In this document: positions 22,196 to 53,678 of the stretch, piece by piece
Numbering within the stretch: position 1 is the stretch's first letter
How the letters are laid out: each line of letters starts with the position of its first letter
Source of the DNA: Linnemannia elongata
Lineage: Eukaryota > Mortierellomycota > Mortierellomycetes > Mortierellales > Mortierellaceae
Direction: 5' to 3'
DNA: 64,000 bases
Assembly: GCA_036320915.1 (NCBI GenBank)
Contig: JAXBDG010000003.1
Span: forward strand, 1,736,001 to 1,800,000
The notes under the pieces: generated by a model
Told to the model about the DNA's origin: nothing
Database searches by the model: none
The model's input: only the letters and a program-made list of their open reading frames with translations
Translations under genes and position numbers: made by a program

Positions 22196-25100
22196 ATGTC
22201 GGCTTCGCCTACAGCTTCAAACAGATCCAGCAGGGTCTTGTCTTTCCCCAACGGGGCCTTTTATATCCAGTCCGGCATTGCTGGTCTTGTGCTCGATATT
22301 GAGAGCGGTTTCTTGAAGGACCCTCTCAAGGCCGGTGCCCGCGTTGAACTTGCCCACCGCAAGTCGACCAAGAGCTCGACCGACTCCTTCCCCGCATTGG
22401 AGCAGCAGCTCTGGAGGGCCGAGGAGAACTACATTGTCAATGTCCGCACTGGTCACGTCTTGGATATCCAAGGAGGTAAAAAAAAAAAAAAAAAATGGAA
22501 AAGAAATGTCGATTTGAAAAAATGGAAGTAATTTCAGATTTTCTCTTTATTATTGCGTCTTTGCAACCTGTCCATTGGTGAGATGGGGGAAAAGGCGCAA
22601 CAGATAAAAGAAAAGTAATGGAAAAAAAAGGAACAATGAAACGAAACGACCGGGAGAGGAAGTGATGAGCAACAGATGATAGAGAGAAAAGTTTACCCAA
22701 AGAAGAGAAGAGTTGGAGAAAGTGACGAGAGCAGGTGCCAATATGAGTTGAGTGAGAGGGAAGAGATATGAGAGAGAGGTCCAGAGGGGAAAAACAAAAG
22801 ACGACCGTTCACGGATGTTCCTTTCCATCTTCCCTATTAAAAGTATCAGATTCTCAACGGTCGTGGGAGTGAAAAAAAAAAGGGGGGGGGGACAAGAAAC
22901 AACAGGCGGAATGCATGGAAGAGAGATATGTTCTGCGTTGAAAAGGGGATAGATGGAAGGAAGGATTGAATATGGGAAGAAGGTGCATGTTCAGTCCATA
23001 GGAGACCATTTGTTCATACCACTCATTCAACATGTGTTGATAAAAAAAATGGAGATGGTGCGCCAATGAGAAGAAAACAAAGGAAATCAGTCCATTGAGC
23101 GTCAGGCACATGAATTCTTCACACACAGGAGAGAAAAGAAAAAGGAAGTGGTTGTTGAAATGCTTCCGCAAATGGTCGCGGAGTAGAAGCATCCCATGCC
23201 AACGGCATCTTCATGCACTGACTGACCATTATTATCATCAATTATCCTATTTCAATCATCCCTTAGGTGTTGTCCGTTCGGGCTCGCGTGTCATTCAAAA
23301 CGTCCGCAAGACCGGCAAGGTAAACAAGAAACAGCCATATCAACAGCAGCAGCAGCAACAGTAACAACAACAACAACGGTGACAACAGTGGCAGTGGACA
23401 GCAATATCGATAGCAGTGGATACAGTATGCGGTTGCCCACAGACAAAAGACGACAGACAGGAGACAGCAGGCAATCAATGGCGATAAGAAACTACAAGAG
23501 TCAGAGAGAGAGAGAGAGAGAGAGAGTGTGTGTGTGTGTGTGAGAGGGTGACAAAATCAAATTAAAGGAATGAATCCGACGAGGATGTGTGCCCAGATGT
23601 TAACAAAGTGGTATTTCGCCATATTTTTTTTCCTTCTGCGTGTTTTAGGATGCCGCCGGTCAGCATTGGTTAAACGATGATGGTGTTTTCACCCTGGCCA
23701 GCAATCCCAAGTTTGTCATCACAATCGACGGCGATGCAACCCGTGACGGAACCCGTATTACTATCCAAGAAAAGAAAGCATACAACGAAAAGCAAAAATG
23801 TAAGCGCCCACCATCCCACCTTATCCCATCCCATCCCGCCACTCCCCACCTTTCCACCACCAAAGAGCCAGACCAAATCCAACCCCTGCTTACAAAATCA
23901 ACTCCCGCCAAGGAACAGGCACTGAAAAGAAAAGAAAAATGTTGGCTCTCATTTCATTCATCTGCCTTGGACATTTGACTGACTCTTATTGGTCTTTTCT
24001 TTTTTATCGTTTTTCAATTTGCAATGAACAACAGGGTATTACCCCGGTGGTGGTGATAGCCGACCTGCCTCCCCATCGCCTTCAAGAGCAGAATCTATCT
24101 CTATTCGCCCCGATAACTTCCCTACAAGCTGGTTCTACATCAAGTCGGCCGCCTCTGGTCTCGTAGTCGATATCGAGCATGGTTACTTCACAGATCCAAT
24201 GAAGGCTGGTGCCCGCGCCGAGATGAACCACCAGAAGATCGACCAGGGTGACGGTCGCCACTCTCTCCTCGAGCTCCAGCTCTGGCGGTACGAGGCTGGT
24301 TACTTGATCAACCGTCGTACTGGCTTTGTTCTCGACATCCAGGGTGGTAAGGGCGCTATTTGGATCTATTGGAGCTTGTCTGTTTATATATATTTTGTGT
24401 GTTTTGTGCATTTGATGTCCGTCTGTGCGTCAATGCATGGATGCATGCAATACACATGCATGTTTGTGATCGTCTTGGTGTTTGTACGTGTATTTACGAC
24501 CAGTGGTATTTATACGTATTTTCGTCCAAAATGTCATTATTTCTTAGGCACCCTTAAATTGAACGCAAGAGTTATTCAGTGGCAACGCAAGGCTGGTCAA
24601 GAGGCCCGCAACCAGCACTGGTTCTACGAAAACGGCTTTATTGCCAATGTCTACAACTCTCGACTTGTCCTGGATATCGACGGCGATGGCTCAAAGGATG
24701 GCGCAAAGATTGCTGTCGGAGAGCGCAAGGCCATCGCCAACTCGGACCAGCAATGTAAGCACCTCATCCTGGTGTTTTTCTTTTCAGTTGTGTGGGAATA
24801 GACTCACATCTTTCTTACTAAACAAATTCTTTCTTTGTCACCCAAAATAGGGCTCTTGGAGGAGGTCAGGTTTACATGGTTGAGTGTCCCAGCAGCACCA
24901 GTAGCAATCGATGAAGTCATCGAGCGTGAGAGTAAGTTGACCGGTCCATCGTGGGAACCAACCACCAGGATATGAAGGATTGCGGTGATAGACAGTACTG
25001 GCAAAAGCCGCCTGTTAACAATAGTTCTCCTCTGTTTTTAACTAGTCCCCGCACCAGTACAGGCACCTCCTGTTACCACTGTTCTCCCCACCAACGGCTG

Positions 25101-28100
25101 GTTCTACATTAAGTCAAAATCCTCTGGTCTTGTTATCGATGTCGAACAAAGCCTCTTGTCCAACCCCATGGATCCTAACGTCCTTGTCAACATGAGCACC
25201 CAAATCAGCGACGATTCGGATTCCGACCACTCCAAGATCGAGTCTCAGCTCTGGCGGTACGATGCCGGTCAGATTATCAACAGACGCTCTGGCCTCGTTC
25301 TCGACTGCAAGCAGGGTGTTGTTCGCTATGGTGCTCGTCTGATGCAGGGTGTCCCCAAGCAAGGAAAGGAGGCTCACCACCAGCGCTGGGAGTCCGTTGA
25401 GGGTGTTTTGATTGTTCAGGGTAAGCCTACCTTCGCCATCGACATCGAGGGTGACGGCACCAAGGCTGGCTCCCGCCTTTCGCTCCAGCGCCCCAAGTCC
25501 CAGAACAACTCGGACCAACAGTGGGTCTTCCAGCTCGCTACTTTCGAGTGGCTCCAGCACGACCGCAACGTTACAAGGACCATCACCGAGCAGACTACTG
25601 TGTTATCCAAGGTCGTCCCCATCACCAAGGGCGACTGGTTCTTCATCAAGTCCAGCGCCACTGGTTTGGTCATGGATTTGGAGGCTGGCTGGATCACCTC
25701 CCCCACCGATGTTGGCGCCTACATTTCCATGAAGAAGCAGCGCTCGCTCGAGGATACCGACAAGAGCCTATTGGAGAGGCAGTTGTGGAGATACGAGGAT
25801 GGCTACTTCTTCAACCGCAGGACCGGCTATGTCATCGACATCTATGGTCGCTCTGCTGTTGTTGGTGTCAAGTTGATCCAGCAACACAAGGCCACTACTG
25901 AGGAGGACGGTCAGCACAACCAGCTCTGGAACGTTGTTGATGGCAACATCCAGTTGTTGCACAACCCAAAGCTTATCATCAACGTTGAGTCTAACAAGGA
26001 CAGCTCCCGTGTCCAGTTGGTCGAGAGCAAGTCGACTGTCAACACATGGACTCTTGAGCTCGCCCAGACCACCTGGTTGAAGCACTCCAGAGCCGTCAGC
26101 CGCTCTGCCTCCTACGACGAGGGTCTCGAGGTTGCTGAGGTCTCTGCACATGCCGAGTTCCCAGTCAACAGTTGGTTCTACATCAAGTCCAAGGCTTCGA
26201 ACCATGTCCTCGACATTGAGCACGGCTTCCTCAAGGATCACACTAAGCCCGGTGCTTACCTCCAGCTCAACCACCAGAAGCTCCGAGCCTCTGCCCAAAA
26301 GCACGCTCTCTTGGAGCTCCAGCTCTGGCGCTTCGAGAACGGTTACATCATTAACCGTCGTACTGGCTTGGTTCTCGATGCCGCTGAGGGTAGCTTGAAG
26401 GCCGGCACTCGCCTTATCCAGTGGACTCGCAATACTCAGGACAACGCCAACCAGCAGTGGGCTGTCTCCAACGGCTTCATTCACCTGAAGGGCTTCCCTA
26501 ATCTTGTTCTCGATGTCGATGGTGACGGCACCCGCGAGCGTGCTCGCATCTCCCTTGGCGAGCGCAAGGACAAGAAGAACCTTGACCAGCGCTGTAAGTT
26601 GTCGACACGATTTCAGGGAGCTTATATTAATGCACATATGAAAGTGTCACAAGTCCACTAACATACAGACATTCACCACGACCATTCCATATATAGGGAC
26701 CTTCGAGTCTGTTCAGTTCACCTGGTTGGCTCTCGAGCGCAGCTACAGCACTATTGAGAACGATGTCGAGTTACTCAAGGAGTACGAGATCAACCACTTG
26801 GCTCGTGTTGTCGACCACAGCCATGCGCCTGTCAACTGCTGGTTCTATTTGAAGTCTGGCATCAGCGACCTCGTCCTCGAGGTTGAGCACGGACGACAGA
26901 TTAACCATCTCCAGGCCGGTTCCCAGGTCAAGTTGGCCCACCAGAGGCTCAAGTCTGGCAAGCACTCGCATGCACTTCTCGAGCTTCAGCTCTGGCGTTT
27001 CGATGATGGTTACATTGTTAATCGTCGCTCTGGACTCGTCCTTGCAGTTGACAACAGTAAGCTAAGGAGTCTATATTCGTTTTATATGTTCTCTACAGCC
27101 TTTCATCATACTCTTGATACTTTGTACTCACCAACTCTCTCTCACTCTCTTTCTCTTATTTTTACTTGTGCTTTTCTAGTCGAAGCCAACGCTAAGCTTG
27201 TTCAGGCTACCAAGTCCACCTCTGAGACCCAGCGCTGGGTTATCGAGCAAGGTGTCCTCCGCCTTGCTCACCGCAGGGAGTTTGCCCTCTTCCTTTCCTA
27301 TGGTCGCCAGGGTTCCAACGCCTTCATTCGCCAGGTCCGCCGTGGTGAGATCCTTCAGAGCTGGTCCTTCTCCGAGGTTCACTTCTCTTGGTTGACTTTG
27401 GACCGCCCCGTCATTGAACAGACTGAGGAACAGCTCGATATTTTGAACGAGAGCGAGGTTACCTACCTCAAGAAGGAGCAGATCCGCATCACCAGACTTG
27501 AGAGATTCTCCAAGACCTCGTACTTCTTTATCCGCGCCTCCAACGGATATGTCGTCGACATTGAGAACGGATTCGGCATCAACCACATGCGCGTTGGTGC
27601 TCATGCCACCGTCCATCCTCAGACCACCGCTGCTTCTGCCAACCAGCATGCTCTCCTTGACATCCAGCTGTGGACCCTCAAGGATGGTTACCTGATCAAC
27701 AAGCGCACTGGTTTGGCTTTGACCATCCAGGGTGAAGCCAAGGAGAGCGTCCACTTGATCCAAGCTCTCCCCAAGGACTCCATCAAGTGGTCGATCGAGG
27801 GAGGCCACATCTTCCCGGAGCAGCACTCTCACCTTGCCCTCAACATCCGTGACGGACAAGTCATCCTCGTTGAGCGCACTGTCGCTGTCTCCTGGTCCAT
27901 ATACCAGGTCTCCTTCTCCTGGCTTGTCTGGACCGAGGTCATCCTTCTTGAAACCGAGCGGTCTGAGGACTTTGAGTTCTACGAGGAGTTCGAGGAGATT
28001 GTTCTCCGCTCCTCTGCCACCTCCACTGAAGTCATTGAGTATGCCAAGACCGAGCAGCGTATCATTGCCCCTAGCGACGCATGGTTCTACTTGGTTGCCG

Positions 28101-31100
28101 GAAATAAGGTTGCTTCTATCTCGACTACTCACTTGTTGGAGCACGGTGCTGATGGTGCCTTGATCGAGCTCTCTGTCCAGAAGCGTTTCGCCTCTGCCCA
28201 GCGCCACGCCCTTGTTGATCTTCAGCTCTGGAAGCTCGAGGGTTCCTATGTCATTAACCGTTTCACCGGTTTGTACCTGACTGTTGATGTCAACGGCTCA
28301 TTGATCCTCTCGACCAAGCAGGCTGATGCTACTCGTCAGCAGTGGACCTTCTCCGAGGAAGGCTCCCTTTCCTTGGTTTCCAACTCCTCCCAGGTCGTCG
28401 ACTTTGTCAACGAGAAGGCCGTCCTGGTCGAGCGTTCTGCCAGCAAGACCGTCTGGCTTTACGATGTCACTCAGTTCAACTGGATCACCACCATGGATGT
28501 CAACACCACCACTGATGTCCAGGCTATCGAGCGCGAGATCACCGAGTACAGAACCGTCTACACTCGCTACATCCAGTACCTCACCAAATACACCATCACC
28601 ACCACCACGACCACCACCATCACCCGCCGTATCATCCGCGTCCATCGCCAGATTCCTCTCGAGGATGCCACTGTTTTGGAGAAGGAAGGCACTGTTTGGG
28701 CCTGCCACTTGGTCGAGGCCGGTACTGGTGTTGATTATGTGATGCAGCTCGTTCGGGATAACATCAAGAACGTCTACTACATTTACATCCAGTGGGGCTC
28801 GACTGAAGGCCAGCTTGAGGGACCCTACGAGAGTACCGAGATCGCCACTGCCGAGTTCCAGGAGATCTTCAGCAACAAGGTCGGCTTTGAGTGGTCCGAG
28901 CGTGAGACCAAGATAACTACCGATGAGAGCTGGAACTCTGTCGAGTTCGAGTATGACACCATCACCGTCGAGGCCGAGCACGGTGGCGTCGTTGGCGAGC
29001 AGACTGGCGGTACAACCACCACCACCACCCGCACCACCACCAGCACACCCAAGCCAATGGTTGATGCCGTCTGTCCTATTGCCGATCAGGTCAGCGTCTT
29101 CAAGGACAACGAAATCTACACCACTACCTTGACCCAGCGGTCCACTGGCGTCATCTATGTCACTCAGTTGCTCTACAACTATGTGACCAAGACTTACTAC
29201 GTCTATCTTCGTTGGGGTGACAATGAGCACACACTGGATGGACCCTACGAAACTGTTGACATCGCCAAAGAGCACTACAGAAAGCAGTACAGCGAGACCT
29301 TCGGTATCACCTGGGAGGAGCGCAATGTTACCACTAACAGTAAGTATTTCCCTATACACTCTTTCTCAGTGAAAACATGTAACTTGCACATCCAAGTATA
29401 TTTTTTATTAACTCAGAATCCTCCTTGTTCCAAAACCCAAATTAGCTCAATGGGCTATTGTTCACCAGACTTTCGAGACCTTGGAGGAGTACGAGGACGT
29501 CTTAAGCGAGGAGGAGCAAGAGCACGATTTGATTGACACCGTCACCGTCATCTCTAAGGATACCGAGACCAGCCGCCAGACCTCTGAGCGCGAGCACGTC
29601 AAGGTTATTCGCACCATTGACACCACTGTTGAGGATCTCGCTAACAAGGACACCACCACCACAACCCAGACTCGCCACACCACTGTCACTCTTGACCAGC
29701 CCACCGTTCCCAAGGGCTCCTCATGGTTCCGCAAGATCGCTACTGGTGCCGGTGTCGTCGCTGCTGGTGCGTTGACCCAGGTTGATGGTGTCTGGAAGCG
29801 TGGCGTTAAGGTCCTTACCACCCAGAAGGCCCATGTCGACACCGTAGCCCCCATCGCCAAGACCTCATACGTCTACTATGATGATGAGGTGTACGATGCT
29901 GTCCTTGTTGAGAAGTCGACTGGCGTTACCCACGTCACTCAGCTCCTCTACGACACTACCACCACCAAGTACTACGTCTACTACCGCTGGGGCGAGACCG
30001 ATTACAAGTTGGATGGACCTCACGAGACTATCGAGTCCGCCAAGGCAGCCTTCCAGGTTACCTACCGCGAGAACTTCGGCGTTCAGTGGGAGGAACGCGA
30101 GACCACTGTGTCTGGTAAGCACCTTCAATTGTGGGTTTCTTAGGTGTTATGACAATTGCTGTCGGTTTGCTAATTTGTTGTTTACCCCCATTCACATTCA
30201 CAGAGCGCTACACTTATGAGTTCAAGACATACGAGACTTTCGAGACAATTGAGGAAATCGAGGAGGTCGTTGAAGAGGACGTTGCCATTGCCATCAATTC
30301 TCGCGACCAGGGGGTTGTGTCTGAGGGTAAGGTCGTCACCGAGGACACCACTTCCACCACGGTTATTAAGGAGGACGATGTTGTTGTTGAGCACGTCCAC
30401 ACTGCCGTTATCGTCGACAAGAAGACAGAGGAAGAAGCCGTCAAGGAGGTTGTTATCACCAAGGTTACCGGAGTGCCTACTCAGCCTGCTGTCCCTAAGG
30501 GTACCTCATGGTTCCGCCGTATTGCCACCGGTGCCGGTGCCGTCGTTGCTGGTGCCGGTGCCGTTGCTGCCGGTGCTGCCTCCGGTGCAGGAAACGCTGC
30601 CTCTGGCGCCTTGACCAAAGTCGATGGTGTCTGGAAGCGCACTGTCCAGGTGTTGACTACCCGCAAGGCTCATGTCGATACCGTCGCTCCCATCGCCAAG
30701 ACCTCGTACGTCTACTACGATGATGAGGTGTACGATGCTGTCCTTGTCGAGAAGTCGACTGGCGTTACCCACGTCACCCAGCTTCTCTACGACACTACCA
30801 CCACCAAGTACTACGTCTACTACCGCTGGGGCGAGACCGATTACAAGTTGGATGGACCTCACGAGACTGTCGAGTCCGCCAAGGCAGCCTTCCAGGTTAC
30901 CTACCGCGAGAACTTCGGTGTCCAGTGGGAGGAACGCGAGACTACCGTCTCTGGTAGGATTACTGTTTGTACTGTTGTTTGTAATTAATGTAGATGTTTT
31001 GGTGCCTCATGTGCTAACTAGTTATTCATGTTCTCAATTACAGAGCGCTTCACCTACGAAGTCAAGACCTACGAAACAATCGAAGAGTATGAGGAGGTCG

Positions 31101-40100: not shown

Positions 40101-43100
40101 CGTCTCTGGTGAGTAATAGATTTTATTGTGTTATGGCGGCTTATGGGTATTATGGATTGTATCCTAACTAGACTCTTTCTTTATTTACCCACACAGAACG
40201 CTTCACCTATGAGGTCAAGACCTACGAGACCTTCGAGACCGTTGAGGAAGTCGAGGAGATCGTTGAGGAGACCGAGGCTGTCGCCATCATCGAGCGTGAG
40301 CAGGAGATCGTCACTCAGGATGAGATCATCACCACCGAGACCACCACCACTACCACCACCACCACCGAAGGTGAGACTGTTCTCGAGCATGTCCAAAAGG
40401 ATGTGATCGTTGACAAGAAGGTCGAGGTCGATGTTGATGTCTCCGTTGATGTTGACGTCGAGGTCGAGAAGAAGGAGGCCAAGGAGACCATCATCACCAA
40501 GGAGACTGGTGTTGTTGCCAAGCCCGCCGCTCCCAAGGGTACCTCCTGGTTCCGCAAGATCGCCACTGCCACTGGTGCCGCTGTTGTTGGTGCTGGAGCT
40601 GTTGCTGTCGGAGCTGGAGCTCTCGCTGTCGGAGCCGTCCACGATGCCGCCTCTGGAGCTGGACATGCTGCCCACGGTGCTTTGGAGAAGGTCGATGGTG
40701 TGTGGAAGCGCACTGTCCAAGTGTTGACTACCCGCAAGGCTCACGTCGATGCCCTCGCTCCCATCGCCAAGACCTCGTACGTCTACTACGATGATGAGGT
40801 GTACGATGCTGTCCTTGTCGAGAAGTCGACTGGCGTTACCCACGTCACCCAGCTTCTCTACGACACTACCACCACCAAGTACTACGTCTACTACCGCTGG
40901 GGCGAGACCGACTACAAGTTGGATGGACCTCACGAGACTGTCGAGTCCGCCAAGGCAGCCTTCCAGGTTACCTACCGCGAGAACTTCGGTGTCCAGTGGG
41001 AGGAACGCGAGACTGCTGTCTCTGGTAAGTGCAAGTTGTGTTTGTAACATCATCGTCGACGCGAGCACAGGTTTTAATGCTAACTGAATTCTATTCTTAC
41101 TTTGTCTTCCACAGAGCGCTTCACCTACGAGGTCAAGACCTACGAGACCTTCGAGACCGTTGAGGAAGTCGAGGAGATCGTTGAGGAGACCGAGGCTGTC
41201 GCCATCATCGCCCGCGAGCAGGAGATCGTCACTCAGGATGAGATCATCACCACCGAGACCACTACCACTACCACCACCACCACCGAGGGTGAGACTGTTC
41301 TCGAGCATGTCCAAAAGGATGTGATCGTTGACAAGAAGGTCGAGGTCGATGTTGATGTCTCCGTTGATGTTGACGTCGAGGTTGAGAAGAAGGAGGCCAA
41401 GGAGACCATCATCACCAAGGAGACTGGTGTTGTTGCCAAGCCCGCCGCTCCCAAGGGTACTTCCTGGTTCCGCAAGATCGCCACTGCCACTGGTGCCGCT
41501 GTTGTCGGCGCTGGTGCCGTTGCTGTCGGAGCTGGAGCTCTTGCCGTCGGAGCCGTCCATGGCGCCGCCTCTGGAGCTGGACATGCTGCCCACGGTGCTT
41601 TGGAGAAGGTCGATGGTGTGTGGAAGCGCACTGTCCAAGTGTTGACTACCCGCAAGGCTCATGTTGATACCGTCGCTCCCATCGCCAAGACCTCATACGT
41701 CTACTACGATGATGAGGTGTACGATGCTGTCCTTGTCGAGAAGTCGACTGGCGTTACCCACGTCACCCAGCTTCTCTACGACACTACCACCACCAAGTAC
41801 TACGTCTACTACCGCTGGGGCGAGACCGATTACAAGTTGGATGGACCTCACGAGACTATCGAGTCCGCCAAGGCAGCCTTCCAGGTTACCTACCGCGAGA
41901 ACTTCGGTGTCCAGTGGGAGGAGCGTGAGACTGCCGTCTCTGGTGAGTAATAGATTTTATTGTGTTATGGCGGCTTATGGGTATTATGGATTGTATTCTA
42001 ACTGGACTCTTGCTTTATTTACCCACACAGAACGCTTCACCTATGAGGTCAAGACCTACGAGACCTTCGAGACCGTTGAGGAAGTCGAAGAGATCGTCGA
42101 GGAGACCGAGGCTGTCGCCATCATCGCCCGCGAGCAGGAGATCGTCACTCAGGATGAGATCATCACCACCGAGACCACCACTACTACCACCACCACCACT
42201 GAGGGTGAGACTGTTCTCGAGCATGTCCAAAAGGATGTGATCGTTGACAAGAAGGTCGAGGTCGATGTTGATGTCTCCGTTGATGTTGACGTCGAGGTCG
42301 AGAAGAAGGAGGCCAAGGAGACCATCATCACCAAGGAGACTGGTGTTGTTGCCAAGCCCGCCGCTCCCAAGGGTACTTCCTGGTTCCGCAAGATCGCCAC
42401 TGCCACTGGTGCCGCTGTTGTTGGTGCTGGTGCCGTTGCTGTCGGAGCTGGAGCTCTCGCCGTCGGAGCCGTCCATGGCGCCGCCTCTGGAGCTGGACAT
42501 GCTGCCCACGGTGCTTTGGAGAAGGTCGATGGTGTGTGGAAGCGCACTGTCCAGGTGTTGACTACCCGCAAGGCTCACGTCGATGCCCTCGCTCCTATCG
42601 CCAAGACCTCATACGTCTACTACGATGATGAGGTGTACGATGCTGTCCTTGTCGAGAAGTCGACTGGCGTTACCCACGTCACCCAGCTTCTCTACGACAC
42701 TACCACCACCAAGTACTACGTCTACTACCGCTGGGGCGAGACCGATTACAAGTTGGATGGACCTCACGAGACTATCGAGTCCGCCAAGGCAGCCTTCCAG
42801 GTTACCTACCGCGAGAACTTCGGTGTCCAGTGGGAGGAACGCGAGACTGCTGTCTCTGGTAAGTGCTAGTTTTGTTTGTAACATCATCGTCGACACAAGC
42901 ACGGTTTTTAATGCTAACTGAATTCTATTCTTACTTTGTCTTCTACAGAGCGCTTCACATACGAGGTCAAGACCTACGAGACCTTCGAGACCGTTGAGGA
43001 AGTCGAGGAGATCGTTGAGGAGACCGAGGCTGTCGCCATCATCGCCCGCGAGCAGGAGATCGTCACTCAGGATGAGATCATCACCACCGAGACCACCACT

Positions 43101-46100
43101 ACTACCACCACCACCACCGAAGGAGAGACTGTTCTCGAGCATGTCCAAAAGGATGTGATCGTTGACAAGAAGGTCGAGGTCGATGTTGATGTCTCCGTTG
43201 ATGTTGACGTCGAGGTCGAGAAGAAGGAGGCCAAGGAGACCATCATCACCAAGGAGACTGGTGTTGTTGCCAAGCCCGCCGCTCCCAAGGGTACCTCCTG
43301 GTTCCGCAAGATCGCCACTGCCACTGGTGCCGCTGTTGTTGGTGCTGGAGCTGTTGCTGTCGGAGCTGGAGCTCTCGCTGTCGGAGCCGTCCACGATGCC
43401 GCCTCTGGAGCTGGACATGCTGCCCACGGTGCTTTGGAGAAGGTCGATGGTGTGTGGAAGCGCACTGTCCAGGTTTTGACTACCCGCAAGGCTCATGTCG
43501 ATACCGTCGCTCCCATCGCCAAGACCTCGTACGTCTACTACGATGATGAGGTGTACGATGCTGTCCTTGTCGAGAAGTCGACTGGCGTTACCCACGTCAC
43601 CCAGCTTCTCTACGACACTACCACCACCAAGTACTACGTCTACTACCGCTGGGGCGAGACCGACTACAAGTTGGATGGACCTCACGAGACTATCGAGTCC
43701 GCCAAGGCAGCCTTCCAGGTTACCTACCGCGAGAACTTCGGTGTCCAGTGGGAGGAGCGTGAGACTGCTGTCTCTGGTAAGTTATTATTGGTGTGCCTCC
43801 CAATGTTGACTCTCAATGAGCAGTTGAAAGCATGAATGCTAATTATATTTAATGGTCCTTTCCTTCACATTCACAGAGCGCTTCACCTACGAGGTCAAGA
43901 CCTACGAGACCTTCGAGACCATTGAGGAAGTCGAGGAGATCGTAGAGGAGACCGAGGCTGTCGCCATCATCGAGCGTGAGCAGGAGATCGTCACTCAGGA
44001 TGAGATCATCACCACCGAGACCACCACCACTACCACCACCACCACCGAAGGTGAGACTGTTCTCGAGCATGTCCAAAAGGATGTGATCGTTGACAAGAAG
44101 GTCGAGGTCGATGTTGATGTCTCCGTTGATGTTGACGTCGAGGTCGAGAAGAAGGAGGCCAAGGAGACCATCATCACCAAGGAGACTGGTGTTGTTGCCA
44201 AGCCCGCCGCTCCCAAGGGTACCTCCTGGTTCCGCAAGATCGCCACTGCCACTGGTGCCGCTGTTGTTGGTGCTGGAGCTGTTGCTGTCGGAGCTGGAGC
44301 TCTCGCTGTCGGAGCCGTCCACGATGCCGCCTCTGGAGCTGGACATGCTGCCCACGGTGCTTTGGAGAAGGTCGATGGTGTGTGGAAGCGCACTGTCCAG
44401 GTGTTGACTACCCGCAAGGCTCATGTCGATACCGTCGCTCCCATCGCCAAGACCTCGTACGTCTACTACGATGATGAGGTGTACGATGCTGTCCTTGTCG
44501 AGAAGTCGACTGGCGTTACCCACGTCACCCAGCTTCTCTACGACACTACCACCACCAAGTACTACGTCTACTACCGCTGGGGCGAGACCGACTACAAGTT
44601 GGATGGACCTCACGAGACTATCGAGTCCGCCAAGGCAGCCTTCCAGGTTACCTACCGCGAGAACTTCGGTGTCCAGTGGGAGGAGCGTGAGACTGCTGTC
44701 TCTGGTAAGTTATTATTGGTGTGCCTCCCAATGTTGACTCTCAATGAGCAGTTGAAAGCATGAATGCTAATTATATTTAATGGTCCTTTCCTTCACATTC
44801 ACAGAGCGCTTCACCTACGAGGTCAAGACCTACGAGACCTTCGAGACCATTGAGGAAGTCGAGGAGATCGTAGAGGAGACCGAGGCTGTCGCCATCATCG
44901 CCCGCGAGCAGGAGATCGTCACTCAGGATGAGATCATCACCACCGAGACCACCACTACTACCACCACCACCACCGAAGGTGAGACTGTTCTCGAGCATGT
45001 CCAAAAGGATGTGATCGTTGACAGGAAGGTCGAGGTCGATGTTGGTGTCTCCGTTGATGTTGACGTCGAGGTCGAGAAGAAGGAGGCCAAGGAGACCATC
45101 ATCACCAAGGAGACTGGTGTTGTTGCCAAGCCCGCCGCTCCCAAGGGTACTTCCTGGTTCCGCAAGATCGCCACTGCCACTGGTGCCGCTGTTGTTGGTG
45201 CTGGAGCTGTTGCTGTCGGAGCTGGAGCTCTCGCTGTCGGAGCCGTCCACGATGCCGCCTCTGGAGCTGGACATGCTGCCCACGGTGCTTTGGAGAAGGT
45301 CGATGGTGTGTGGAAGCGCACTGTCCAGGTGTTGACTACCCGCAAGGCTCACGTCGATGCCCTCGCTCCTATCGCCAAGACCTCCTACGTCTACTACGAT
45401 GATGAGGTATACGATGCTGTCCTTGTCGAGAAGTCGACTGGCGTTACCCACGTCACCCAGCTTCTCTACGACACTACCACCACCAAGTACTACGTCTACT
45501 ACCGCTGGGGCGAGACCGACTACAAGTTGGATGGACCTCACGAGACTATCGAGTCCGCCAAGGCAGCCTTCCAGGTTACCTACCGCGAGAACTTCGGTGT
45601 CCGGTGGGAGGAACGCGAGACTGCTGTCTCTGGTAAGTGCTAGTTTTGTTCGTAACATCATCGTCGACACAAACACGGTTTTTAATGCTAACTAAATTCT
45701 ATTCTTACTTTGTCTTCTACAGAGCGCTTCACCTACGAAGTCAAGACCTACGAGACCTTCGAGACCGTTGAGGAAGTCGAGGAGATCGTAGAGGAGACCG
45801 AGGCTGTCGCCATCATCGAGCGTGAGCAGGAGATCGTCACTCAGGATGAGATCATCACCACCGAGACCACCACCACTACCACCACCACCACTGAGGGTGA
45901 GACTGTTCTCGAGCATGTCCAAAAGGATGTGATCGTTGACAAGAAGGTCGAGGTCGACGTTGATGTCTCCGTTGATGTTGACGTCGAGGTCGAGAAGAAG
46001 GAGGCCAAGGAGACCATCATCACCAAGGAGACTGGTGTTGTTGCCAAGCCCGCCGCTCCCAAGGGTACTTCCTGGTTCCGCAAGATCGCCACTGCCACTG

Positions 46101-49100
46101 GTGCCGCTGTTGTTGGTGCTGGAGCTGTTGCTGTCGGAGCTGGAGCTCTCGCTGTCGGAGCCGTCCATGGCGCCGCCTCTGGAGCTGGACATGCTGCCCA
46201 CGGTGCTTTGGAGAAGGTCGATGGTGTGTGGAAGCGCACTGTCCAAGTGTTGACTACCCGCAAGGCTCACGTCGATGCCCTCGCTCCTATCGCCAAGACC
46301 TCCTACGTCTACTACGATGATGAGGTATACGATGCTGTCCTTGTCGAGAAGTCGACTGGCGTTACCCACGTCACCCAGCTTCTCTACGACACTACCACCA
46401 CCAAGTACTACGTCTACTACCGCTGGGGCGAGACCGACTACAAGTTGGATGGACCTCACGAGACTATCGAGTCCGCCAAGGCAGCCTTCCAGGTTACCTA
46501 CCGCGAGAACTTCGGTGTCAAGTGGGAGGAACGCGAGACTGCTGTCTCTGGTAAGCATATTATATGTAATATCGTTTGCATTTGATGTGGGCATTATTTG
46601 TTCATTTGCTAATTACTATTTATTTATTTTCTCGTTAACAGAGCGCTTCACCTATGAGGTCAAGACCTACGAGACCTTCGAGACCGTTGAGGAAGTCGAG
46701 GAGATCGTCGAGGAGACCGAGGCTGTCGCCATCATCGCCCGCGAGCAGGAGATCGTCACTCAGGATGAGGTCATCACCACCGAGACCACCACCACTACCA
46801 CCACCACCACCGAGGGTGAGACTGTCCTCGAGCATGTCCAAAAGGATGTGATCGTTGACAAGAAGGTCGAGGTCGACGTTGATGTCTCCGTTGATGTTGA
46901 CGTCGAGGTCGAGAAGAAGGAGGCCAAGGAGATCATCATCACCAAGGAGACTGGTGTTGTTGCCAAGCCTGCTGCTCCCAAGGGTACTTCCTGGTTCCGT
47001 AAGATCGCCACTGCCACTGGTGCCGCTGTTGTTGGTGCTGGAGCTGTTGCTGTCGGAGCTGGAGCTCTCGCTGTCGGAGCCGTCCATGGCGCCGCCTCTG
47101 GAGCTGGACATGCTGCCCACGGTGCTTTGGAGAAGGTCGATGGTGTGTGGAAGCGCACTGTCCAGGTGTTGACTACCCGCAAGGCTCATGTCGATACCGT
47201 CGCTCCCATCGCCAAGACCTCGTACGTCTACTACGATGATGAGGTGTACGATGCTGTCCTTGTCGAGAAGTCGACTGGCGTTACCCACGTCACCCAGCTT
47301 CTCTACGACACTACCACCACCAAGTACTACGTCTACTACCGCTGGGGCGAGACCGACTACAAGTTGGATGGACCTCACGAGACTGTCGAGTCCGCCAAGG
47401 CAGCCTTCCAGGTTACCTACCGCGAGAACTTCGGTGTCCAGTGGGAGGAGCGTGAGACTGCCGTCTCTGGTGAGTAATAGATTTTATTGTGTTATGGCGG
47501 CTTATGGGTATTATGGATTGTATTCTAACTGGACTCTTGCTTTATTTACCCACACAGAACGCTTCACCTATGAGGTCAAGACCTACGAGACCTTCGAGAC
47601 CGTTGAGGAAGTCGAGGAGATCGTTGAGGAGACCGAGGCCGTCGCCATCATCGCCCGCGAGCAGGAGATCGTCACTCAGGATGAGGTCATCACCACCGAG
47701 ACCACCACCACTACCACCACCACCACCGAGGGTGAGACTGTCCTCGAGCATGTCCAAAAGGATGTGATCGTTGACAAGAAGGTCGAGGTCGATGTTGATG
47801 TCTCCGTTGATGTTGACGTCGAGGTCGAGAAGAAGGAGGCCAAGGAGACCATCATCACCAAGGAGACTGGTGTTGTTGCCAAGCCCGCCGCTCCCAAGGG
47901 TACCTCCTGGTTCCGCAAGATCGCCACTGCCACTGGTGCCGCTGTTGTTGGTGCTGGAGCTGTTGCTGTCGGAGCTGGAGCTCTCGCTGTCGGAGCCGTC
48001 CACGATGCCGCCTCTGGAGCTGGACATGCTGCCCACGGTGCTTTGGAGAAGGTCGATGGTGTGTGGAAGCGCACTGTCCAGGTGTTGACTACCCGCAAGG
48101 CTCACGTCGATGCCCTCGCTCCTATCGCCAAGACCTCCTACGTCTACTACGATGATGAGGTGTACGATGCTGTCCTTGTCGAGAAGTCGACTGGCGTTAC
48201 CCACGTCACCCAGCTTCTCTACGACACTACCACCACCAAGTACTACGTCTACTACCGCTGGGGCGAGACCGACTACAAGTTGGATGGACCTCACGAGACT
48301 GTCGAGTCCGCCAAGGCAGCCTTCCAGGTTACCTACCGCGAGAACTTCGGTGTCCAGTGGGAGGAGCGTGAGACTGCCGTCTCTGGTGAGTAATAGATTT
48401 TATTGTGTTATGGCGGCTTATGGGTATTATGGATTGTATCCTAACTAGACTCTTTCTTTATTTACCCACACAGAACGCTTCACCTATGAGGTCAAGACCT
48501 ACGAGACCTTCGAGACCGTTGAGGAAGTCGAGGAGATCGTTGAGGAGACCGAGGCTGTCGCCATCATCGCCCGCGAGCAGGAGATCGTCACTCAGGATGA
48601 GATCATCACCACCGAGACCACCACTACTACCACCACCACCACTGAGGGTGAGACTGTTCTCGAGCATGTCCAAAAGGATGTGATCGTTGACAAGAAGGTC
48701 GAGGTCGATGTTGATGTCTCCGTTGATGTTGACGTCGAGGTCGAGAAGAAGGAGGCCAAGGAGACCATCATCACCAAGGAGACTGGTGTTGTTGCCAAGC
48801 CCGCCGCTCCCAAGGGTACCTCCTGGTTCCGCAAGATCGCCACTGCCACTGGTGCCGCTGTTGTTGGTGCTGGAGCTGTTGCTGTCGGAGCTGGAGCTCT
48901 CGCTGTCGGAGCCGTCCACGATGCCGCCTCTGGAGCTGGACATGCTGCCCACGGTGCTTTGGAGAAGGTCGATGGTGTGTGGAAGCGCACTGTCCAGGTG
49001 TTGACTACCCGCAAGGCTCACGTCGATGCCCTCGCTCCTATCGCCAAGACCTCCTACGTCTACTACGATGACGAGGTGTACGATGCGGTCTTGGTTGAGA

Positions 49101-51096
49101 AATCTACTGGCGTCACTTATGTGACCCAACTTCTCTTCGATAGCGCAACCACCAAGTACTACGTCTACGTCCGCTGGGGTGAGACCGATTACAAGCTCGA
49201 CGGACCCCATGATACCGTTGAGGCTGCTAAGGCGGCCTTCCAGATTACCTACCGTGAGAACTTCGGTGTCCAGTGGGAGGAGCGTGAGACAACTATCAGT
49301 GGTAGGTTTTAATACGCCAACGCAGTGTATTCTGGTTCTTTTATTTTTGTCAATTACTAATTCTTTTATTTTTGCTGACATTTTGTAGATCGCTTCACCT
49401 ACGAAGTTAAGACTTATGAGACATTCGAGACCGTCGAGGTTGTCGAGGAAGTTGTTGACGAGCAGGTTGCTGAAGTCATTCTCAAGCGAGAGCAGGAGGT
49501 TATTGTTGATGACGGAACTGTCCAGACCGAGACTACGACTTCGACCACTATTACCCGTCAGGAGGAGAGTGTTTCTGAGGTCGCCTATGAGGTTGAGGTT
49601 GTCGATGGTGAGGAGATTACCAAGGTTATCACCACTACCAAGGAGACTGGTGTCGTTGCCCAGCCCGCTGTTACTAAGGGTAACTCCTGGTTCCGTCGCC
49701 TTGCCAGCGGCGCCGGATTGGCCGCTGCTGGAGCCTTGACTCAAGTCGATGGCGTCTGGAAGCGTACCGTCCAGGTCCTCACCACTCGCAAGGCCCACGT
49801 TGATGCCGTTGCTCCCATCGCCAAGACTTCGTACGTCTACTATGATGATGAGGTCTATGACGCTGTTCTCACCGAGAAGTCAACTGGCGTTACGTATGTG
49901 ACCCAGTTGCTCTTCGACAACGCCACCGCTAAGTATTACGTCTACGTCCGTTGGGGAGAGACTGATTACAAGCTCGATGGACCCCACGATACCATTGAGT
50001 CTGCCAAGGCTGCATTCCAGATCTCATACCGCGAGCAGTTCGGCGTCCAGTGGGAGCACCGTGAGACCACCGTCTCTGGTAAGTTTTTACGCACGCTATC
50101 TTAATGACCCTTACTGATTTGTTTCTTGCAAATCTCTAACTGTGTTTTCTTTCCATATTTGCTTTTTAACAGAGCGCTTCGCTTACGAGGTGAAGACTTA
50201 TGAGACCTTCGAGACAACCGAGGAGATTGAGGAGATCGTTGAGGATTACGAAGTCTCTGAGGTTGTTGCCCAAGAGAAGGTTTTGGTGGAGGATGAGCGT
50301 ATCGTTTCCACTCACCAGTCGATCACTTCCTCGCACGACGACACCCTTGTCCGCAACGTCAGCGAGCAGGTTCTCATCAAGAAGGGAGCTGAGGTTGACG
50401 CTGCCGAATTGTCCCGCACTCAGTACGAGACCTTGTCCCGTGTTGATTCTACCTCTTCTGCTGCTGGCTCCAGTGCCCTCTTCGGAGGCGCTGCTGCCAT
50501 CCTTGGAGGTGCCGCTGCTGTTGGTGCCATCCAGCACGGTGGTGCTTCTTCGACCACCGTCGTTGAGGAGACCAAGAAGGCTGTATTCGACTGTAAGTAT
50601 ACTGTAGCTTTTTGTTGTTGCATATTCTGCATTCCGACCTCCAATCTGCATATCCTAACCCTTTCTGCTCTTGTTATCTTTTCCGTTTTCTTTAGTCTCA
50701 AGCCTCCCTGTCCTCCCCGATCAGGGTATTGACGTCCAGACTGGAGCCTCAATCGGCGTGATTGACTTGACTTCAGGCACCGCCGAGGCCTACCGCGAGT
50801 TGCCCCGCCACTTGCGCCCCCGCGCCTGGGTCTCACTCCACGTCGGAGGCTGGCAGGATGCCCCCCACGAGTTGGAGGGTTTCATGCGCCTTGACGACCA
50901 GTCTGGCCAGCGCCTGATGGAGTCTGCCCGTGACGCCGCCCAGGGTAAGGCCCAGGAGGCTACCCCGATTGATAACCTCCGCCTCCCCGAGATTGTCGCC
51001 CTCTTTGCCAAGAAGTTGTACGGACACTTTGGTGAGGAGCTTCCCGCCGAGTTGACTTTGGACCGTCTTCGCCAGTTGGGTCCTCACCGTCCCTAA
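22196..51096 (+). CDS. Giant tandem-repeat protein: eight beta-trefoil lectin units plus 25 WGR-like modules, ~8,200 aa
   Basis: Thirty-four exons join without phase error into 8,201 codons. Exons 1-12: 22196-22475, 23267-23319, 23649-23799, 24035-24346, 24548-24754, 24851-24931, 25046-26593, 26697-27056, 27180-29339, 29446-30114, 30204-30953, 31044-31832. Exons 13-31 are in the array entry. Exons 32-34: 49389-50078, 50173-50592, 50696-51096. Only the exon 2/3 intron is phase 0; the other 32 are phase 1. Residues ~20-1480 are beta-trefoils, ~1530-7920 WGR-like modules, 7928-8200 a unique tail. No signal peptide precedes the first trefoil, so a cytosolic protein is likely unless the Gly/Ala segments insert in membranes. 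The beta-trefoils suggest glycan or protein binding; the WGR fold is known from DNA-end-sensing PARPs, but the key Arg is missing. A scaffold role is my inference. I do not know a described protein of this architecture. Copy number depends on correct assembly of near-identical repeats. Confidence 0.9.
22250..28480 (+). other. N-terminal region: eight R-type beta-trefoil (ricin-B-fold, CBM13-like) units
   Basis: Each unit of about 150-185 residues shows three sub-repeats. The alpha-like part is WFYIKS..GLVLDIE; the beta-like part is QLWRYE.GYIINRRTGLVLD; the gamma-like part is NPKLVLDIDGDG.. followed by a QQW. The QLW/QHW/QKW/QQW pattern is the QxW signature of R-type trefoils. Approximate units: 1 in exons 1-3, 2 in exons 4-6, 3 (25100-25560), 4 (25630-26075), 5 (26160-26735), 6 (26825-27410), 7 (27510-27935), 8 (28075-28480). 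Units 6-8 are degenerate: the VLDIDGDG of the third sub-repeat is lost and unit 8 has AGNKVASIS where others have LVLDIE. Many ends carry F(T/E)WL before an acidic linker. The R-type fold here is a binding module; no toxin catalytic domain is present. Ligand specificity cannot be read from sequence. Confidence 0.8.
28655..30953 (+). other. Divergent WGR-like modules 1-4 (exons 9-11)
   Basis: Modules 1 (~28655-28915) and 2 (~29060-29339) are the most diverged. They have QWGS and RWGD at the signature position and are separated by Thr-rich linkers (TTTTTTRTTT at ~29020). Module 3 is exon 10 (29446-30114, 669 nt) and module 4 is exon 11 (30204-30953, 750 nt). In modules 3 and 4 the last ~270 nt are almost identical to the core array, while their N-terminal acidic parts and Gly/Ala segments are shorter and different. 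These look like older members that bracket the array on its 5' side. Confidence 0.75.
31044..49301 (+). repeat. Tandem exon array: 20 near-identical exon+intron units of ~920 bp
   Basis: Exon 12 (31044-31832, 789 nt) is followed by nineteen exons of exactly 828 nt, starting at 31923, 32851, 33769, 34687, 35603, 36531, 37447, 38363, 39281, 40197, 41115, 42031, 42949, 43877, 44805, 45723, 46642, 47558 and 48474. Each is 276 residues. By position in the unit: acidic Val/Glu stretch 1-40; Thr run 46-57; alternating Val-Asp stretch 72-92; WFRK then a Gly/Ala/Val hydrophobic segment 118-163; linker ending VWKRTVQVLTTRK; WGR-like fold 196-272 with RWGE at 234-237. All flanking introns are phase 1 and 87-100 nt long. 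Units differ at a few recurring positions: GAVHG/D, HVDTV/HVDAL, IAREQ/IEREQ, DVDVSV/DVGVSV. Confidence 0.95.
49389..51096 (+). other. C-terminal part of the giant protein: last WGR-like module, acidic linker, unknown end domain
   Basis: Exon 32 (49389-50078, 690 nt) is a divergent WGR-like module with RWGE and a short Gly/Ala segment. Exon 33 (50173-50592) begins like a module (ERFAYEVKTYETFET) but lacks the WGR fold and ends with a Gly/Ala-rich stretch around GGAAAILGGAAAVGA. Exon 34 (50696-51096) encodes 132 residues of ordinary composition, with GVIDLTSGTAEAYRELPRHL, a VSLHVGGW motif and a helical end (LRLPEIVALFAKKLYGHFGEE). I do not recognise it. The stop is TAA at 51094-51096, with AATAAA 102 nt later. 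Confidence 0.8.
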
Positions 51097-51363: not shown

Positions 51364-53456
51364 TTATCCTCGTTCTGGCTCACCAATGGCCATTAACAGC
51401 GTGCGACGGTAATCTCCACTGGTCTCGCCTTTGATCCTGTCGCGCAACGACTTCTTGTACTTGGCTGTGTAATTAGCCTTGATCTGGGCCATGAAAGCCG
51501 GTGTCCGGTTGCGAACCACCAACCGTGTCAACGAGGCATCATCTGTTCCTGCACCCTCCATCGCCTTTTCCATGTTCTTGGCGATACACATTGCTGGGTT
51601 TTCGATCCACTCGACTATGTTGTTGGAAAGGATATAGTAATAAAATGACGAGCTGGTTAGGATTTAGCCTTTGAGGTTGGGGTGAGTATTGCCAAAATAG
51701 CAAATAAACACTCGATCGATGACGAACTGTAGACACAGCTCAACCCCAATACATCACGAAAACTAAAATAAAAAGTGCAAAGTGATGAGTGCACAACTTA
51801 CCCAAGTAAACAAGCGCAGTTTCGATCCATCCGGAGAACTCCTTAATGATAGCCTTGCTAAACTTTTTGCCGTAGCGGGATTCGTATTGTTTGAAGACAA
51901 GTCGAAGATGGGCATCGGGTCTGTTGGTGAGGATGTGGATGAACTGCGACTCGTCTGTGCCCATTCTACCCTCTCCCGCCTTGTACAATGCCTGGGTATC
52001 TGCCTCTACGTTGTACTGATAGTGTCCAATCTCATCACGGGTGCCCTATTGAACGTGGAAGAAAAGACTGTCAGAAATCGCAAGACATATACTCTAATAA
52101 AGTTGGATGAGTAGGATAGCAAAAAAGATATTATACCTGGATACAGACGACTAGGAGCTTCTCAAAGTATCCACTGACATCGTTCTTGACTGTTTGCTCG
52201 AGGGAGCGGTGGTATTTAGACTGGAAGACATGCTTGAGTTGTGCCATATCTGCGTTGGTCCTTCCCACAAGAGTTTGGATCAAGCACTGTTGATCAAGAA
52301 GAATAGAACAGAAAGAAGAAAAGTGGCCACAAGGTGGCAGGCAGGTTAGTACAAAGATCATTTATCCAGAGTATAAAAAGAAAAACAGTACACGCGGCAC
52401 AGGATCGAGTTGTGTCATGATTGTTTGATCTTAGTTGTTGTGTTGCCGTTGCTGGCAAACAAAAACATCAATAACATAAACACAAACCAAGGTCAACAAC
52501 ATTTGAAAATACACAAAGCGTGAACAAAGAGGCAAAGGGTAGAGAACCTGGTAGTCTCCAAGCGGCATGGTGACATCGGAACTTACGCGTTCGTTGGTAC
52601 CGGCACCAATGCAGGCCTGATAAATGAGCTCTGCATCGAGCACAATGGGTGGGAGGATAAGGTAGTGGAGTGCTCGACCGAAATGACCGCTCGTCTCTTT
52701 GTCGAGAACCTCCACCAAATCTCGTCCGTAGAACTGCTTGTACACCGAGGTCACTACTGCCAAGTGTTCTGGGGGTCTGGCAGCTATCAAGTTGAGATGA
52801 TAGATGGCGTGATGTAAGTAAAGAGTTCTGTATATTCTCGACAAGCAAGCGGTCAACAAAAGAGCTTAGCAAAAGAGCTGCGTTTTTTGTTGTTTGCTTC
52901 AGGTACCCCAGCAACAATAAACAAAACAAAAACCAAATTCTCATTGCTTACCAACAACACTAATGACTCGCTTCTCATCAGTACCAAAGCCCTTGCAAGC
53001 TGAGTGAATGGTCTCGGCATCTTGTTGAGGTGTGGGTCCACCAGCTGCGGGTTGGTAGTAGTTAGGCTGGCCCATGGGCATAGTCGGCGCATGAGCCATT
53101 GTGGGCGCATGAGTCATGGTGGGTGCGTGCTGAGGTGGTGGAGGATGAGCTCCTGCAGCTGGAGCAGGGTATCCGTAAGGAGCTGGTGGAGGTGCGCCTG
53201 GAGCGGGGTATCCATAGGGAGCGGGGGCGCCATAGGGAGCGGGGGCGCCATAGGGAGCTGGTGGTGGCGCACCTGGGGCAGCAGCAGGGTATCCGTATCC
53301 GGGCTGACCAGGTGGAGGTGCACCGCCCTGGGGTGGGTAGGCAGGGTAGCCGGGTTGAGCTGGTGGATAGCCGACGGGTGCGCCAGCAGCGTATTGTTGT
53401 TGGGGAGGATAACCAGGGTAGCCGTAGGCACCTTGACCAGGAGGGTAGTATGACAT
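51364..53456 (-). CDS. Annexin with Pro/Tyr/Gly-rich N-terminal tail
   Basis: Calcium-dependent phospholipid-binding protein, expected at membrane surfaces. Five exons: 53456-52952, 52783-52587, 52286-52137, 52045-51802, 51614-51364. Phases fit and give 448 aa. Residues 1 to about 138 are a low-complexity Pro/Tyr/Gly/Ala tail with PYG and GYP repeats followed by three APTM copies. Such tails occur in annexin A7/A11-like proteins and promote self-association. Four annexin repeats follow. Type II Ca2+ sites are visible: KGFGTDE with a downstream KETSGHF in repeat I, GAGTNE with KNDVSGYF in II, GRMGTDE with KEFSGW in III, and GAGTDD with KGETSGDY in IV. The acidic cap residue is present in I, II and IV and least clear in III. 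The start is the first ATG of the PYG tail; longer frames upstream are low-complexity 5'UTR. The gene is convergent with the giant gene, with 267 bp between stops. Confidence 0.95.
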
Positions 53457-53651
53457 CTTGGATGGAGTTTTTGCGATTTTTAGTGCTGTAACGTATAGAC
53501 TGGAGAAAAGGAAAAAAGAGCGGAAGAGAAATGAAAGAGAAAGAGAGTGAAAAAAGAAAAAATGAAAAAAACGAGGGAATGAGGAAAACGCCAAAGTTGG
53601 CTCTGAAATAATGAGGAGAAAAGAGGCGATGATCCGCCCCTTTATCAATAA

Positions 53652-53678
53652 TTTTTTTTTTTTTTTTTTTTTTTTTTT
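53652..53678. repeat. Poly(T) homopolymer
   Basis: Twenty-seven T residues about 200 bp upstream of the annexin start. Confidence 0.95.

What the first reader, a model, noticed from the sequence alone, without database searches (positions are those of the whole stretch)
22196..51096. One gene encodes a ~8,200-residue protein made of beta-trefoils and WGR-like modules
Thirty-four exons join with consistent phase over 28.9 kb. Very few fungal proteins reach this size. The order, eight lectin-fold units then 25 WGR-like modules then a unique tail, is one I do not know from described proteins. A cytosolic scaffold or surface polymer is possible; both are inference.
Basis: partly seen in the sequence, partly recalled or inferred. 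Interest (0 to 1): 0.95.

Follow-up and report, generated by a model that had tools for sequence, protein, structure and literature searches.

The report
Giant fungal lectin-WGR repeat protein
A soil fungus carries one gene for a roughly 8,200-residue protein built from eight lectin-type domains and 25 copies of a domain known from DNA-break sensors that has lost key DNA-contacting parts, and the same copies also turn up in immune-receptor-like genes.

Summary
One splice path of 34 exons (22196-51096) encodes 8,200 aa (905 kDa) without an internal stop; 32 of 33 introns are phase 1. My profiles find 8 beta-trefoils and 25 WGR domains, then a tail. The genome is Mortierella/Linnemannia-like (inference). 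Of 38 relatives, 26 carry 8 trefoils and at least one WGR. An M. claussenii model not marked partial (2,663 aa) has 8 trefoils, 5 WGR and the same tail; a partial M. alpina model (4,632 aa) has 8 and 14.
Best reading: an intracellular multivalent scaffold whose WGR modules dock proteins, linked to the NLR repertoire. Mechanism inferred.

The parts
22196..22475 (+). exon 1: start codon, trefoil 1 (first part)
   Evidence: same start MSASPTASNRSS in M. hygrophila P0001
23267..23319 (+). exon 2 (53 nt): trefoil 1
   Evidence: same sequence in P0001
23649..23799 (+). exon 3: trefoil 1
   Evidence: hand-set 3' junction agrees with P0001
24035..24346 (+). exon 4: linker and trefoil 2 (first part)
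   Evidence: RicinB_lectin_2 14.6 bits in this exon alone, below the cut-off 25.6
24548..24754 (+). exon 5: trefoil 2 (W and NQ of the sugar-type residue set; its Asp lies at the end of exon 4)
24851..24931 (+). exon 6: end of trefoil 2, linker
   Evidence: hand-set junctions agree with P0001
25046..26593 (+). exon 7: trefoils 3, 4 and most of 5
   Evidence: RicinB_lectin_2 4.3e-24, Ricin_B_lectin 4.9e-19; all 7 own-genome matches at E<=0.001 lie in this gene
26697..27056 (+). exon 8: end of trefoil 5, trefoil 6 (first part)
27180..29339 (+). exon 9: rest of trefoil 6, trefoils 7 and 8, WGR 1 and WGR 2
   Evidence: WGR1 and WGR2 fall in two clades of 29 and 30 rows, each 100/100
29446..30114 (+). 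exon 10: WGR unit 3 (223 codons)
30204..30953 (+). exon 11: WGR unit 4 (250 codons)
31044..31832 (+). exon 12: WGR unit 5 (263 codons)
31923..49301 (+). exons 13-31: 19 homogenised WGR units of 276 codons, one per exon, separated by introns of 88, 90, 91 or 100 nt
   Evidence: pN/pS 0.104
49389..50078 (+). exon 32: WGR unit 25 (230 codons)
50173..50592 (+). exon 33: unit N-terminal linker without WGR, Gly/Ser/Ala-rich stretch
50696..51096 (+). exon 34: conserved C-terminal tail and stop
   Evidence: 75-82% identical in the 4 relatives aligned

Best explanation
One gene makes a giant, most likely intracellular, multivalent scaffold. SHOWN BY SEQUENCE OR MODEL: eight N-terminal beta-trefoils, two of which keep the ricin-B-type D/W/N-Q residue set; 25 WGR domains joined by acidic linkers and a basic Gly/Ala-rich stretch; a tail conserved in the relatives that reach it; homogenised array units; the same units in NLR-like and other signalling proteins. 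INFERRED: the trefoil head binds a glycan or another ligand, the tail anchors the protein, and the WGR array gives many near-identical protein-docking sites on a long, strongly acidic, flexible rod. The WGR domains have lost several DNA-break contacts and so probably work as protein-interaction modules. Because NLR-like proteins carry these modules near their C-termini, the giant and the receptors probably share a binding partner or bind each other. Array length can change by exchange between units without breaking the frame, since every unit is one exon between phase-1 introns.
For: Gene model. Domain counts. Eight trefoils followed by WGR in 26 of 38 relatives. Whole order trefoils-WGR-tail in P0005. 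WGR relation. WGR Arg in 0 of 173 cores, Asn129 and Lys130 columns empty in 173 of 173, Asn127 in 3 of 173; roles of these residues in PARP2 from PMC8190142 (passages). Purifying selection. Exons 96.9% identical between units whose downstream introns differ in class (129 pairs) while those introns are 63.5% identical, shuffle mean 58%. Tree: a starred clade of 37 rows holds 23 window units, 12 units I labelled NLR (4 of them from P0030, labelled by its tail only), 1 VIT-type and 1 other. ARM_5-NACHT frame next to units in this genome; remnants of exons 33 and 34 there. D/W/NQ at trefoil 2 in 22 of 29 and at trefoil 5 in 21 of 29.
Against: No expression, localisation or binding data. Two PARP2 contact positions are not lost: Trp151 is kept in 140 of 173 cores and Lys183 in 80 of 173; Tyr201 lies outside the cores and was not assessed. 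No structure for linker or tail (pLDDT under 50 for unit residues 1-179; tail model mean 48.2). A lectin-type head without a secretion signal has no obvious cytosolic ligand. Most unit-bearing relatives are automated, partial models (32 of 38 are named partial), and several fusions could be merged models. WGR units were found at one locus besides the giant, while ARM_5 has at least 100 loci, so the immune link may be incidental domain capture.
Confidence: 0.45

Rival explanations
1. A leash: the two conserved ends bind two cellular structures and the array is only a length-setting, elastic spacer, as recalled for the giant fungal septal tether leashin (recall, no call). WGR units need no partner.
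For: Ends conserved, middle variable in copy number: 5 WGR in M. claussenii, 14 in a partial M. alpina model, 25 here. Charge of residues 1701-8000 about -496.
Against: The WGR core is under purifying selection (pN/pS 0.156) and its core Gln and Trp are kept in 173 and 171 of 173; units also sit in ones and twos in other proteins, where they can hardly be spacers.
Confidence: 0.25
2. A cytosolic defence lectin against fungus-eating animals, as known for fruiting-body lectins (recall): trefoils bind the predator's glycans and the array gives size or stability.
For: Ricin-B-type trefoils with no sign of a secretion signal; sugar-type residues kept in trefoils 2 and 5.
Against: One trefoil locus in this genome and one conserved eight-trefoil head in 26 of 38 relatives rather than a variable toxin set; trefoils 6-8 lack the Asp at the scored position in 29 of 29; the WGR array is not explained.
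Confidence: 0.1
3. A membrane-threaded or surface protein: the Gly/Ala/Val stretch in each unit is a membrane helix.
For: Each 276-codon unit has a stretch with a Kyte-Doolittle mean up to 2.08 over 19 residues.
Against: The stretch is much shorter in exons 10 and 32 and in M. claussenii (sequence); no hydrophobic segment near the N-terminus.
Confidence: 0.1
4. The region is several genes or an assembly error.
For: No transcript evidence; near-identical repeats can be miscounted.
Against: Single open splice path; the order of intron classes along the array is not periodic, unlike a looped assembly; the whole order in P0005 and trefoils plus 14 WGR in P0057.
Confidence: 0.06
5. The WGR array binds nucleic acid, as in PARPs.
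For: Genuine WGR fold; the motif Trp kept in 140 of 173 and Lys183 in 80 of 173.
Against: Arg in 0 of 173, Asn129 and Lys130 columns empty in 173 of 173; in the window's 25 cores Lys183 is kept in 1; WGR core pI 4.5.
Confidence: 0.06

Closest known systems
WGR domain of PARP1/2/3 (PF05406)
   Different: No PARP catalytic domain in the parts scanned; WGR Arg replaced mostly by Glu, Ser or Asp; loop columns empty; tandem array, where PARPs have a single WGR (recall).
Ricin-type beta-trefoil lectins (PF14200, PF00652)
   Same: Pfam hits above cut-off in exons 7 and 9; best PDB match of exon 7 is 6lci mdaA-1, E 6.2e-10, then plant lectin chains; D/W/NQ in trefoils 2 and 5.
   Different: Eight in a row, no sign of a signal peptide, trefoils 6-8 without the sugar Asp.
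Fungal NLRs with highly conserved WD, ANK or TPR repeats (HNWD family; PMC4986451, passages read)
   Same: Highly similar repeats, exchanged within and between genes; NACHT proteins among the carriers.
   Different: The repeat is a 223-276 codon linker-plus-WGR unit; no NACHT in the giant's exons scanned; purifying selection in this array, where that paper reports positive selection.
Gilbertella persicaria trefoil protein P0038 (Mucorales)
   Same: Nine trefoils by my profile; 24% identity over 50% of the query.
   Different: No WGR unit by my profile.
Leashin-type giant septal tethers (recall only)
   Same: Giant fungal protein with conserved ends and a long repetitive middle (recall).
   Different: No homology tested.

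Membership tests
WGR domain (PF05406) | Curated Pfam score (22 bits) | tested here: inconclusive
   No hit for a single array unit; exon 9 scores 16.2. Relatives P0012 (27.7) and P0010 (24.4) pass, P0005 (16.4) does not. The own-genome PF05406 search missed the array.
WGR domain (PF05406) | Sequence profile relation to PARP WGR | tested here: met
   14 of 14 PDB sequences matched at E<=1 are PARP1-3, best 3e-7; hhalign 94.9%, E 4.3e-8 to own PARP
WGR domain (PF05406) | Fold | tested here: met
WGR domain (PF05406) | Trp-Gly-Arg signature and DNA-end contacts | tested here: not met
   Arg in 0 of 173, Asn129 and Lys130 columns empty in 173, Asn127 in 3; but Trp in 140 and Lys183 in 80 of 173; roles from PMC8190142 passages
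PARP / ADP-ribosyltransferase | Catalytic domain | tested here: not met
   No PARP catalytic Pfam hit in the 8 window pieces scanned, in P0030, P0032, P0034-P0037 or in P0005, P0010, P0012, P0033
Ricin-type beta-trefoil lectin | Trefoil with QxW repeats | tested here: met
Ricin-type beta-trefoil lectin | Sugar-binding residues | tested here: inconclusive
   Full set in trefoils 2 and 5 only (22 and 21 of 29, pattern-based lower bounds)
Ricin-type beta-trefoil lectin | Glycan binding | not testable with these tools
   needs a glycan array
Fungal NLR (STAND) | NACHT or related NTPase in the same protein | tested here: not met
   Not in the exons of the giant scanned (4, 7, 8, 9, 10, 18, 33, 34). 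In the frame beside the C1 units ARM_5 is 4.1e-51 and NACHT 31.5 bits, cut-off 26.7
Fungal NLR repeats with high internal conservation | Repeats over 85% identical over 100 residues | tested here: met
   19 units 94-100% identical
Fungal NLR repeats with high internal conservation | Exchange within and between genes | tested here: inconclusive
   Mosaic variants and intron classes within the array; window and NLR-labelled units in one starred clade; exchange itself not observed
Fungal NLR repeats with high internal conservation | Diversifying selection | tested here: not met
   pN/pS 0.104 overall, 0.156 in WGR, averaged over units of one genome; single sites not tested

The most novel reading that the evidence does not exclude
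The giant is a guarded hub of the fungal cell, and its WGR unit is the bait: NLR-like receptors, VIT-VWA proteins, GTPases and an ion channel have captured units, at the C1 locus together with remnants of the giant's 3' end, as integrated decoys or docking keys, so that one homogenising repeat serves as the common password of a cell-wide alarm network in Mortierellomycota.
Probability: 0.15. Interest if true: 0.92.

Novelty: new variant of a known kind. Interest (0 to 1): 0.8.

Why it matters
It would be among the largest proteins predicted in fungi outside the peptide synthetases (recall), with relatives through the Mortierellomycota genera returned by the searches and no description in the papers searched. 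It shows a DNA-break sensor fold turned into a tandem repeat that has lost key DNA contacts, and a repeat shared between a conserved giant and NLR-like proteins. That makes the question of what fungal NLR repeats recognise testable with a defined domain of about 92 residues. Two relatives (P0033, P0034) are labelled ADP-ribosyltransferases in UniRef although no catalytic domain was found in them.

Tried and rejected
The own-genome Pfam WGR search found only a place on C12, which its ORFs show to be a PARP-type protein (my reading), and missed the array; Pfam alone would have rejected the WGR reading. A single unit against PDB gave only E 0.069 to PARP2, mixed with unrelated hydrolases; the profile was needed. 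The tail model is too weak (mean pLDDT 48.2) and was not searched. Fascin matches to trefoil 8 are below cut-off (17.6 and 20.4 bits, cut-off 23.1) and I do not use them. In relatives, CDGP passes its cut-off in P0030 (29.8 against 24.3) but covers only 32 residues of a repeat; I take it as chance, as I do the sub-threshold DUF6316, NT5C and PAPS_reduct matches. A read of the PARP locus with stops as X gave no Pfam family. Paper searches for WGR domain with ricin and fungi, mdaA with beta-trefoil, and WGR with NACHT and fungal returned 0 papers; searches gave no title or abstract start describing this protein. Of those lists I read passages of PMC11291939, PMC4986451 and PMC9815663 only ('wgr' occurs 0 times in the main text of each), and passages of PMC8190142; the rest I saw as listings. 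P0058 (M. alpina: ARM_5, a sub-threshold NACHT, WGR, 8 trefoils, 8 WGR, NLR-type tail) may be a true fusion or a merged model; I could not tell. The tree bootstrap had not settled, so I rely on starred forks. Four-fold identity in the array also depends on intron class (92.1% different, 93.9% same), so homogenisation is not strictly bounded by introns. In one search some cells are missed by my pattern (7 of 29 at trefoil 1), so counts are lower bounds. Rows dropped: 188 WGR hits at E <= 1e-5, 15 shorter than 70 residues left out, 173 used. After a recount I raised the nucleic-acid rival from 0.04 to 0.06, because Trp151 and Lys183 are partly kept; no other odds changed.

Full report
WHAT WAS CHECKED. 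The window is contig C23:1736001-1800000 of a 51.1 Mb, 32-contig genome. The closest relative of its first 2,000 residues is a Mortierella hygrophila protein (94% over 96%), so I take the genome as a Mortierellomycete (inference). A splice-aware dynamic programme forced to start at the ATG 22196 found its best stop at 51096 with 34 exons. Three junction regions were then set by hand, giving 8,200 aa, 905 kDa, pI 4.8, no internal stop, introns phase 1 except intron 2. The scoring model was trained on ORFs of the same locus, so the support that counts comes from elsewhere. P0001 of M. hygrophila has the same start and the same sequence across the hand-set junctions. Changes among array units fall mostly at third codon positions (18/10/69). 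pN/pS is 0.104 over 19 units: 0.095 in the linker, 0.037 in the Gly/Ala-rich stretch and 0.156 in the WGR core.

ANATOMY. My profiles, seeded in part with the window's own sequence, place 8 trefoils (starts at residues 22, 194, 380, 559, 738, 926, 1112, 1299) and 25 WGR cores starting at residues 1491 to 7835. Pfam supports the trefoils (RicinB_lectin_2 4.3e-24 in exon 7 and 1.2e-7 in exon 9). Each array unit is one exon: an acidic linker (pI 4.2), a basic Gly/Ala-rich stretch (pI 10.6) and an acidic WGR core (pI 4.5) (exon 18). The last two exons carry a truncated unit and a tail that is 75-82% identical in the four relatives aligned. By a crude hydropathy scan the first hydrophobic segment is at residue 2047, so there is no sign of a secretion signal.

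RELATIVES. One search (residues 1-2000) returned 38 proteins: 37 with trefoils or WGR units by my profiles, and one Mucorales protein (P0038) with nine trefoils and no WGR. 26 of 38 carry 8 trefoils and at least one WGR. 32 of 38 are named partial and 22 of 38 lie on contigs under 20 kb, as expected if near-identical repeats break assemblies (inference). P0005 from M. claussenii is not marked partial: 8 trefoils, 5 WGR and the tail., aimed at long proteins, gave 3: P0012, P0057 (M. alpina, 4,632 aa, partial, 8 trefoils and 14 WGR, units 3-14 being 89-100% identical in the core) and P0058. In this genome all 7 matches to exon 7 at E<=0.001 lie in the giant itself. So the head is conserved and array length differs between lineages.

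EVOLUTION OF THE ARRAY. In a tree of the 173 cores, the first and second WGR positions fall in clades of 29 and 30 rows over many species (each 100/100). Of the later units, the 23 of the window lie in a starred clade of 37 rows with 12 units that I labelled NLR, one VIT-type unit and P0002; a starred clade of 9 holds the Actinomortierella units; the M. alpina units form only an open, unstarred group. The bootstrap had not settled. Within the window, exons are 96.9% identical between units with different classes of downstream intron (129 pairs) and 97.7% with the same (42 pairs), while introns of different class are 63.5% identical (shuffle mean 58%); the last 90 nt of the exon follow the intron class (94.9% against 99.2%). 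This fits exchange tracts that end inside exons. The intron-class order is not periodic, which argues against a looped assembly.

THE NLR LINK. At E<=0.001 these units were found in one other place of this genome, C1:4752768-4755218 (the tool calls such counts lower bounds). Just upstream on the same strand lies a 1,256-aa frame with ARM_5 (4.1e-51) and NACHT (31.5 bits, cut-off 26.7); that the two form one gene is inferred, with M. hygrophila P0034 (ARM_5, NACHT below cut-off at 23.4, 3 WGR) as the annotated parallel. The last unit there runs into a piece like the giant's exon 33 (42% over 147 columns), then two short remnants of exon 34 (25 aa at 76%, 24 aa at 62.5%) with the middle missing, then an NLR-type tail shared with P0034 and, by BLAST, with P0030, P0039, P0049 and P0058. 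A whole-genome search with exon 34 did not pick up these remnants. I read this as a copy of the giant's 3' end beside a receptor gene. ARM_5 has at least 100 loci in this genome (100 scored of 122 candidates), so this is one of many. Among the 58 proteins bear PF23948 (ARM_5) in the listed annotation and 12 of these have a WGR match by my profile, some only as a stub at a cut end (P0053 has none). Four are VIT-VWA proteins with units (P0036, P0041, P0044, P0052); two are GTPase proteins with units (P0035, P0046; a third, P0032, has trefoils and no scored WGR); one is an ion channel (P0037; P0043 only below cut-off). The NLR label is not one clade (0 of 200 bootstrap trees) and needs at least 3 changes on starred branches, which may be one gain and two losses, so repeated capture is suggested, not shown. 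Many of these models are partial and automated.

HOW IT PROBABLY WORKS. Shown by sequence or model: anatomy, conservation, fold, loss of several DNA contacts, homogenised units, presence of units in receptor-like proteins. Inferred: intracellular location, ligand binding by the head (trefoils 2 and 5 keep D/W/NQ in 22 and 21 of the 29 proteins scored; trefoils 6-8 have no Asp at that position in any of the 29), anchoring by the tail, protein docking by WGR units. Closest in behaviour are the repeats of fungal NLRs with high internal conservation (PMC4986451, passages read), but that paper reports positive selection on such repeats and I find purifying selection in this array. PMC11291939 and PMC9815663 (passages read) speak of Mortierella NLRs or their domains and hold the word WGR 0 times.

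VERDICT. The protein belongs to a conserved, unnamed family and is no one-off. The surprising parts are a WGR array without the WGR arginine and its presence in NLR-like proteins.

Noticed in passing
C1:4752010-4759099 of the same genome (L012, L013, L016): ARM_5-NACHT frame followed by WGR units and remnants of the giant's last exons, about 50 kb from the contig end.
   Followed up: partly
whole genome G000: At least 100 ARM_5 loci (100 scored of 122 candidates), a very large NLR-like repertoire.
   Followed up: no
P0058 (M. alpina, 4,407 aa): ARM_5, sub-threshold NACHT and WGR followed by 8 trefoils, 8 WGR and an NLR-type tail: true fusion or merged model.
   Followed up: partly
P0033, P0034: Labelled NAD(+) ADP-ribosyltransferase in UniRef although no catalytic domain was found.
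   Followed up: yes
window 54904-57039 (-): Protein kinase ORF downstream of the giant (Pkinase 1.2e-47).
   Followed up: no
window 52944-53726 (-): ORF with a weak annexin match (20.3 bits, cut-off 25).
   Followed up: no
window 11412-12182 (+): Sodium/calcium exchanger ORF (25.9 bits, cut-off 24.9).
   Followed up: no
window 32826-35264 (-) and similar: Long antisense open frames, up to 813 codons, opposite the array; perhaps shadows of the repeated codon usage.
   Followed up: no
P0049 (Gryganskiella cystojenkinii): One WGR unit plus the NLR-type tail; no Pfam family at E<=0.01 in my scan, PF27087 in the precomputed list.
   Followed up: no
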